DNA of 64,000 bases from Candidatus Jordarchaeales archaeon (GTDB lineage: Archaea > Asgardarchaeota > Jordiarchaeia > Jordiarchaeales > Freyrarchaeaceae): positions 750,852 through 814,851 of the forward strand of contig JAWAHN010000001.1 of NCBI GenBank assembly GCA_038889235.1, in the 5' to 3' direction. The position numbers were made by a program, and so were the translations under genes. Shown piece by piece: positions 52,974 through 53,690 of the stretch. The notes under the pieces are model-generated. The model worked only from the letters and a program-made list of their open reading frames with translations. It had not been told where the DNA came from and did not search any database. Numbering within the stretch: the first letter of the stretch is position 1; each line of letters starts with the position of its first letter.

Positions 52974-53690
52974 TCGAAAGATGATTGCTCCCATCCATAG
53001 CGCCCTATAAGTGGGACAAAAGATACTGGACCGTAGTCCCTTTTCTTAATTTTGCCCTCTTCATCTTTTTCCACCACCACGAGCGTTTGGTTGTAGTAAA
53101 ACCTGCCGATTGGTATAACCATGCGGCCTCTTGGTGCAAGTTGAGTTAGAAGCGGCTCAGGGATCGATGGGCCGGCAGCAGTCACAAGTATAGCGTCGTA
53201 AGGCGCTTCTGGAGGGTATCCCAGAGTTCCATCACCTAGAATAACAGTTACCCTGTCTCCGTACCCTGTCTTTTCTAAATTGCGCCTGGCGAAATCTACT
53301 AGTTCCTCTATGCGTTCTATGGTGTAAACGTGGCCGTGTTTTCCTCCTTCAGGAGCAACTATTTCAGCGCACAGTGCAGCGTGGTATCCCGACCCTGTTC
53401 CAACTTCGAGGACTTTCATCCCTTCGCGTAGCTTCAAGAGATCGCACATTAGAACGCACATATGTCGCCTAAAGGGCTTCAGTAAGCCCTTTAAGTGGCG
53501 CGGATATTGTTTGTCCTCCCGGTATGGGAAGGGGGCGATCGTCATATGCGTACTTCCTTAAATCCTCTGGAACGAATTCTTCTCTAGGAACTTTCATGAA
53601 CGCCCTAATTACGGCTTCATCTCTGACAAAACCTTCCTCTATAAGCCTTTCTATGAGGGCTTTTTTCTTTTCTAAGAGAGAGTCGTTCAA
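52970..53690 (-). CDS. pcm: Protein-L-isoaspartate O-methyltransferase, interrupted by a 31-nt intron
   Basis: Exon 1 is 53690-53495 and exon 2 is 53463-52970; joined they give 229 residues, the normal length. Exon 1 encodes LIEEGFVRDEAVIRAFMKVP and ends ...PIPGGQTISAP. Exon 2 continues HMCVLMCDLLKLREGMKVLE followed by VGTGSGYHAA (SAM motif I). The junction APHM is exactly the conserved pre-motif of the family. Unspliced, the reading runs into TAG within the insert. Pcm repairs isoaspartyl residues in aged proteins, which matters at high temperature. The splice sites fit a canonical BHB (see the intron entry). Retention without splicing would give only a 73-residue peptide. Confidence 0.88.
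53464..53494 (-). other. 31-nt BHB-type intron in pcm
   Basis: On the minus strand: central helix CGCC (53500-53497) with GGCG (53469-53466), 3-nt bulges ACT (53496-53494) and ACA (53465-53463), inner stem of 10 bp (53493-53484 with 53479-53470) and loop ACTG. Cutting after the second base of each bulge, the standard position for archaeal splicing endonuclease, removes exactly 31 nt and joins CCA-CAT (Pro-His) in frame. An outer AUAU/AUAU pairing (53507-53504 with 53463-53460) is possible but weak. Confidence 0.82.

What the first reader, a model, noticed from the sequence alone, without database searches (positions are those of the whole stretch)
53464..53494. Protein-coding BHB intron in pcm with textbook geometry
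Seen: the gene is split by 31 nt that introduce a stop. Removing exactly 53494-53464 (minus strand) restores GGQTISAP-HMC, the conserved Pcm pre-motif. The insert has a 4-bp CGCC/GGCG helix, 3-nt bulges ACT and ACA and a 10-bp inner stem, and the standard cut positions give precisely the in-frame junction. Known: archaeal splicing endonuclease cuts such motifs in tRNA and rRNA; the established archaeal mRNA case is cbf5. Pcm would be a new host gene as far as I recall.
Basis: partly seen in the sequence, partly recalled or inferred. Interest (0 to 1): 0.93.

Follow-up and report, generated by a model that had tools for sequence, protein, structure and literature searches.

The report
Tiny introns in archaeal messenger RNAs
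In an Asgard archaeon the protein-repair gene pcm is broken by a 31-letter insert that the cell's tRNA-splicing enzyme is predicted to cut out of the messenger RNA, and because the same position carries such an insert in 55 archaeal genomes from two phyla, mRNA splicing in archaea is likely wider than the single gene where it has been shown.

Summary
The 31 nt at 53494-53464 (minus strand) split pcm with a stop, and removing them at the standard bulge-helix-bulge (BHB) cut sites restores GGQTISAPHMC. Geometry alone proves little: strict BHBs are about as common in shuffled DNA. Conservation decides. The same site carries a BHB insert in all 8 searched genomes of this order (Jordarchaeia), in 5 other Asgard genomes (13 of 227) and in 42 of 398 sampled Thermoproteota. 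Lengths are 21-40 nt, stems covary (9 of 12 pairs change on both sides), all 55 join in frame, and all 14 inserts of a length divisible by three hold a stop. Both exons are under purifying selection. The genome has two EndA-family genes and RtcB. A second split gene, not in this finding, lies 2.2 kb away: aIF5B, cut in its P-loop by a 29-nt BHB-like insert in 4 of 4 genomes of the genus; beside it is a tRNA-Lys with two inserts. One further case is hypD. Best reading: EndA/RtcB-spliced pre-mRNA introns, as in cbf5, in new host genes. Splicing is inferred; no RNA was examined. One carrier appears to be the cultivated Bathyarchaeum tardum.

The parts
53495..53690 (-). pcm exon 1 (TTG start at 53690 inferred; ends ...ISAP + first base of the His codon)
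   Evidence: NCBIfam (exon-1 ORF 66.8 bits to PRK13942); dN/dS 0.010-0.164 in 18 of 19 pairs, one not computable for saturation
53464..53494 (-). 31-nt BHB intron: 53494 third base of bulge 1; inner stem 53493-53484 with 53479-53470; loop 53483-53480; 3' half of central helix GGCG 53469-53466; 53465-53464 first two bases of bulge 2
   Evidence: intron models R1-R3; covariation
53497..53500 (-). exonic half of the central helix, CGCC (within the Ala-Pro codons)
   Evidence: the Ala codon is GCG or GCA in 55 of 55 carriers, against 41 of 84 non-carrier rows in which the motif was found
52970..53463 (-). pcm exon 2 (ATATGTGCG...; methyltransferase domain, stop at 52972-52970)
   Evidence: dN/dS 0.023-0.160 in 19 pairs
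55668..55721 (+). aIF5B (archaeal IF-2) exon 1, MKLRSPIVVVLGHIDHGK
55722..55750 (+). 29-nt BHB-like insert in aIF5B: inner stem CATAGCACG/CGTGCTATG 9 bp, bulges AA|A and AA|A, central helix GGCA/GGCT with 3 pairs (one G-U) plus A.G; boundaries can slip within AAAC
   Evidence: same insert in 4 of 4 genomes of the genus; joined protein 856.6 bits against 805.1 without exon 1
55751..57460 (+). aIF5B exon 2 (TSLLDAIRGTAV...)
55375..55493 (-). tRNA-Lys(CUU) gene with two putative non-canonical introns (55469-55454 in the D arm, 55423-55395 at the T loop)
   Evidence: ARAGORN finds nothing in the raw sequence and tRNA-Lys(ctt) once both inserts are removed

Best explanation
The 31 nt in pcm are a bulge-helix-bulge insert that is predicted to be cut out of the pre-mRNA by the archaeal tRNA-splicing endonuclease (EndA) and likely resealed by the RNA ligase RtcB, so that the spliced message would encode full-length protein-L-isoaspartate methyltransferase. 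Shown: the insert brings an in-frame stop; the BHB pairing is possible; exact in-frame repair at the standard cut points; the same insertion site in 55 pcm genes of two archaeal phyla with covarying stems; purifying selection on both exons; two EndA-family genes and one RtcB gene in this genome. Inferred: transcription, cleavage, ligation, translation of the joined message, and pairing of the two EndA proteins into the heterotetrameric type. A second insert of the same architecture in aIF5B, 2.2 kb away, would be removed in the same way.
For: Identical codon position and in-frame SAPHM junction in 12 of 12 carriers first read and in 55 of 55 pcm carriers in all; a 56th insert restores HypD CGTHEYT. 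Exon 1 ends in C in 56 of 56; in 48 of 56 the last intron base is not C, so only the canonical cut rebuilds the His codon. Covariation on a structure-blind alignment of 12: 95.8% of cells paired against 79.1% shuffled, 9 of 12 pairs changed on both sides, score 0.600 against 0.265 shuffled and at most 0.236 when slid; on 56 loci 0.630 against 0.201, alignment fitted to the structure. The central helix itself varies in step: CGCC/GGCG 45, CACC/GGTG 7, CGCC/GGTG 3, CGGC/GCCG 1. Exonic constraint: Ala codon GCG 48 + GCA 7 of 55 in carriers against GCT 28, GCA 28, GCC 15, GCG 13 of 84 non-carrier rows. All 14 inserts with length divisible by 3 contain a stop. dN/dS 0.010-0.164 over both exons. No intact second pcm was seen in this genome: its next match after the two halves has 33.3 bits. 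EndA-family genes x2 (Tyr, His and Lys visible in one, His lacking in the other, by eye) and RtcB. Only the joined protein passes the Pcm equivalog cut-off.
Against: No RNA or protein data were available. The BHB conformer is not the minimum-energy fold in the window's RNA (-20.0 against -22.5 kcal/mol) and lies 0 to 4.6 kcal/mol above the minimum in the 14 checked. BHB geometry by itself occurs by chance. The insert is in only 13 of 227 Asgard genomes by model R1; the site was read directly as unbroken in 48 Asgard pcm rows, and for the rest absence rests on R1 under stricter filters and a match list that was cut.
Confidence: 0.93

Rival explanations
1. Natural split gene: the insert is a hairpin between two cistrons, exon 2 starts at its own ATG (the Met of SAPHM), and two polypeptides assemble into Pcm.
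For: Exon 2 begins A-C/T-ATG in 56 of 56, so a start codon sits at the junction.
Against: It does not explain the covarying central helix that pairs exon with intron, the restricted Ala codon, or the invariant C that rebuilds His. In hypD that ATG is out of frame. In aIF5B the break falls inside the P-loop GHIDHGKT.
Confidence: 0.03
2. Programmed translational bypass: the ribosome hops over the hairpin.
For: A hairpin with a stop inside a gene is the look of known bypass elements (recalled, T4 gene 60).
Against: The His codon is split 1+2 across the insert, and in 48 of 56 there is no contiguous landing codon that gives His. Exon-intron base pairing is conserved instead. Two EndA-family genes and RtcB are present.
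Confidence: 0.02
3. Pseudogene, insertion scar or assembly error.
For: The named relatives that carry it are metagenome-assembled (titles).
Against: dN/dS at most 0.164 on both exons. Same site in 55 genomes with mostly different insert sequences, including a contig whose length equals that of the complete Bathyarchaeum tardum genome.
Confidence: 0.01
4. Stop-codon recoding (selenocysteine or pyrrolysine) reads through the insert.
For: Jordarchaeia are inferred to recode UGA (PMC9723677, passages).
Against: 31 nt shifts the frame, so read-through cannot restore Pcm, and the stop here is TAG; the same paper places Pyl recoding only in Sifarchaeia among Asgards; insert lengths fall in all three frame classes (14, 21, 21).
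Confidence: 0.005

Closest known systems
cbf5 pre-mRNA intron of Crenarchaeota (Watanabe 2002, recalled through citations; Yokobori 2009, PMC2738675, passages and conclusion read)
   Same: Short BHB intron in a protein gene; some lengths divisible by 3 (33, 36, 39 nt there); patchy gain and loss; a paper title in PMC12397907's reference list (Yoshinari 2006) ties it to hetero-oligomeric endonuclease.
   Different: Other host genes (pcm, aIF5B, hypD) and other clades (Asgard; Thermoproteota including a genome whose length matches Bathyarchaeum tardum); introns down to 21 nt; one site shared by two phyla. No splicing experiment yet.
Archaeal tRNA introns with BHB or relaxed BHB motifs
   Same: Same 3-4-3 geometry and cut positions. 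Atabeyarchaeia and Freyarchaeia have introns in 92-95% of tRNA genes, often non-canonical (PMC11291895, passages); a tRNA-Lys in this window shows two inserts.
   Different: Here the host is a protein-coding message.
HVO_1309 5'-UTR BHB in Haloferax (PMC7714728, passages)
   Same: mRNA cut by EndA.
   Different: It lies in a 5' UTR, not inside a reading frame.

Membership tests
Archaeal BHB pre-mRNA intron | Two 3-nt bulges on opposite strands separated by a 4-bp helix, with an inner stem | tested here: met
   pcm in the window and 55 of 55 pcm carriers; central helix paired in 100% of cells. The aIF5B insert meets it only partly: 3 of 4 central pairs.
Archaeal BHB pre-mRNA intron | Cut after the second base of each bulge joins the reading frame | tested here: met
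   56 of 56 open over 80 codons round the junction; aIF5B 4 of 4
Archaeal BHB pre-mRNA intron | Structure conserved by compensatory change | tested here: met
   for pcm; the aIF5B insert hardly varies, so it gives no covariation
Archaeal BHB pre-mRNA intron | Host has EndA and a tRNA ligase | tested here: met
   PF01974 x2, PF01139 x1, this genome only
Archaeal BHB pre-mRNA intron | Excised RNA and ligated exons seen in vivo or in vitro | not testable with these tools
   no transcript data
Group I or group II intron | Ribozyme core | tested here: not met
   21-40 nt inserts; no Rfam match in the window at gathering thresholds
Intein | In-frame protein insert | tested here: not met
   31 nt with a stop
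Heterotetrameric (alpha-beta)2 EndA | One catalytic and one His-lacking structural subunit | tested here: inconclusive
   Two TIGR00324 proteins over cut-off; residues judged by eye against PDB chains, their roles recalled

The most novel reading that the evidence does not exclude
Enzymatic mRNA splicing by the tRNA endonuclease is a general, ancient step of gene expression in Asgard archaea and Bathyarchaeia-like Thermoproteota. Tiny introns sit inside the catalytic motifs of housekeeping genes (translation factor aIF5B at its P-loop, Pcm at SAPHM, HypD at CGTHEY), so that making these proteins depends on EndA, and each gene would be silenced if splicing stopped.
Probability: 0.55. Interest if true: 0.92.

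Novelty: new member of a known kind. Interest (0 to 1): 0.83.

Why it matters
In the papers seen here cbf5 is the only archaeal protein gene with a shown BHB intron. Here are three further candidate host genes, one of them a core translation factor, in Asgard archaea (the group held to be nearest to eukaryotes) and in a phylum with a cultivated member that appears to carry one. If true, gene finders wrongly split or discard such genes, protein synthesis and repair are tied to tRNA-splicing enzymes, and the question of how common mRNA splicing is in archaea becomes directly testable.

Tried and rejected
Structure alone as proof: rejected, strict BHBs occur at chance level, and a relaxed BHB-plus-ORF scan of the window gave 103 plus-strand candidates (output cut, minus-strand total not seen); of those I followed one, 5138-5102, which lies inside an unbroken 849-aa ORF. 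Rfam on the window: nothing. Intron model R1 in six named-locus genomes: 0 of 6. R3 in the Methanothrix phylum: 2 of 294 weak hits, each lying between unbroken ORFs that are not pcm. R1 hits G102, G105, G444 and G570: read, not pcm, no repair seen. R3 in 37 relatives including this genome: 12 pcm introns at 37.9-56.4 bits, next best 18.0; as R3 did not list the aIF5B insert either, this does not exclude others. hypD intron: only G448 of 7 genomes in its order. Single origin: the tree of 100 of 150 pcm rows (50 dropped by hand: long branches, near relatives, two mislabelled) needs 3 changes, and the AU test does not reject one carrier clade (p 0.621), so neither one origin nor several is shown. 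One search's automatic pick was wrong for G404, G564, G624 and G239 and missed G386 and G398; these were read by eye and re-derived from model coordinates. One search translated a wrong frame and was not used; loci L238-L240 were fetched and not used.

Full report
Observation. The minus strand of the window reads pcm from a TTG at 53690 to a stop at 52970, broken by 31 nt. The break has the form CGCC AC|T-(10-bp stem, 4-nt loop)-GGCG AC|A, and cutting after the second base of each bulge removes 53494-53464 and restores ...GGQTISAPHMC... in one frame. The joined protein scores 300.8 bits against the Pcm equivalog PRK13942 (cut-off 282); the halves score 66.8 and 214.5. In the Protein Data Bank its best match is 2yxe, a protein-L-isoaspartate O-methyltransferase. 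No intact second pcm was seen in the genome: after the two halves the next match has 33.3 bits.

Is it chance? By structure alone it nearly is: strict BHBs with inner stems of at least 8 bp number 5 on each strand of the window and 2-9 in six shuffled strands; at 10 bp or more, only this one in the window and 0-1 per shuffle. The evidence comes from relatives.

Organism and relatives. The window lies in a 2.14-Mb genome. Its nearest named relatives are Candidatus Jordarchaeum and Jordarchaeia, Asgard archaea. In a survey of 227 Asgard genomes, 203 have a pcm match at E up to 1e-12. Carriers of the insert are 13 of 227: all 8 genomes of this order that were searched (G000-G007), G012, G016 (one of its pcm copies), G027, G034 and G186. 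The site was read directly as unbroken in 48 other Asgard pcm rows; for the rest absence rests on the model search. A covariance model of the intron (R1) then rang in 45 of 398 sampled genomes of the phylum of a Pyrolobus MAG (Thermoproteota). I fetched all 45: 42 are pcm with the intron at the same codon, one (G448) is hypD, and two (G444, G570) are chance matches. In the same 398 genomes 263 have a pcm match. In 294 genomes of the phylum of a Methanothrix MAG, model R3 gave 2 weak hits; both lie between unbroken ORFs that are not pcm, so 0 of 294 verified.

Anatomy across 56 inserts. Lengths 21-40 nt, most often 31. Central helix CGCC/GGCG 45, CACC/GGTG 7, CGCC/GGTG 3, CGGC/GCCG 1. Exon 1 ends in C in all 56; exon 2 begins ACATG in 54 and ATATG in 2. 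Splicing leaves an open frame over 80 codons in 56 of 56. Left in, the message stops 2-38 codons after exon 1 in 56 of 56. Fourteen inserts have a length divisible by three and all 14 hold a stop. In 48 of 56 the last intron base is not C, so the conserved His is rebuilt only by the canonical cut.

Selection. On a MAFFT alignment made without structure, 9 of 12 pairs change on both sides and the covariation score is 0.600 against 0.265 shuffled; on 56 loci aligned to the model it is 0.630 against 0.201. The exonic Ala codon is GCG or GCA in 55 of 55 carriers, but GCT, GCA, GCC, GCG in 28, 28, 15, 13 of the 84 non-carrier rows where the motif was found, of 93. dN/dS is 0.010-0.164 for exon 1 (18 of 19 pairs; one not computable for saturation) and 0.023-0.160 for exon 2 (19 pairs). 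The energy model is less kind: of 14 RNAs checked, the BHB form is the best fold in G001 and G016, is 2.5 kcal/mol above the best fold in the window and up to 4.6 above it elsewhere.

Machinery. This genome encodes two EndA-family proteins (both over the TIGR00324 cut-off) and RtcB. One EndA aligns best with PDB 3p1z and 3ajv and keeps Tyr, His and Lys by eye; the other lacks the His. This suggests the heterotetrameric type, one of the four archaeal types listed in PMC12397907 (passages); the catalytic roles of the residues are recalled.

A second split gene. At 55668-57460 (plus) the gene for aIF5B is broken by 29 nt between GHIDHGK and TSLLDAIRG. The same insert is in 4 of 4 genomes of the genus. 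Its central helix has three pairs and an A.G, its inner stem nine pairs. Unlike the pcm introns it is almost invariant: 0-2 differences of 29 while 6-9 of 18 exon-1 codons differ synonymously, which I cannot explain. The joined protein scores 856.6 bits against 805.1 for exon 2 alone. Flanks fetched from G004-G007, G012, G027 and G034 did not show the GHxDHGK motif, so its wider spread is unknown. Between the two genes lies a tRNA-Lys(CUU) that ARAGORN sees only after two inserts are removed, in line with the many non-canonical tRNA introns reported for two other Asgard lineages (PMC11291895, passages).

History. A tree of 100 of 150 pcm proteins needs three changes of state, and one clade of the 39 carriers included is not rejected (p 0.621). 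One old gain with losses or transfer, and several gains at a favoured site, both remain open. The hypD case is a single genome of 7 in its order.

Literature. PMC7714728 (passages) gives cbf5 as the only additional BHB intron reported in archaea besides its own 5'-UTR case; PMC2738675 (passages and conclusion) says no other gene had been confirmed and cites predictions. The listings of nine topic searches of the held library showed no pcm, aIF5B or hypD intron; most subscription papers and all bioRxiv preprints are outside it. The contig of carrier G305 (2,152,501 bases) has exactly the genome length given for Bathyarchaeum tardum M17C in PMC10477458 (Table 2, passage), a cultivated organism; identity by length is an inference.

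Verdict. A BHB intron of the cbf5 kind in new host genes, at 0.93, lacking only RNA proof.

Noticed in passing
window 55722-55750 (+): 29-nt BHB-like insert with a stop in the P-loop of aIF5B, present in 4 of 4 genomes of the genus and nearly invariant in sequence; not part of the finding given.
   Followed up: yes
window 55493-55375 (-): tRNA-Lys(CUU) gene with two putative non-canonical introns, invisible to ARAGORN until both are removed.
   Followed up: partly
L179 (G448 C1:8899-8936): 26-nt BHB insert in hypD of a Thermoproteota genome with the same junction letters CAC^ACATG as in pcm; the joined protein scores 334 bits to HypD (cut-off 192.8). Hints at a preferred insertion site.
   Followed up: partly
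L165, L176 (G564, G592): pcm introns of only 21 nt (6-bp stem, 2-nt loop).
   Followed up: no
L168 (G305 C1): Carrier contig with the exact length of the cultivated Bathyarchaeum tardum M17C genome; two other carriers (G356, G503) have identical Pcm proteins.
   Followed up: partly
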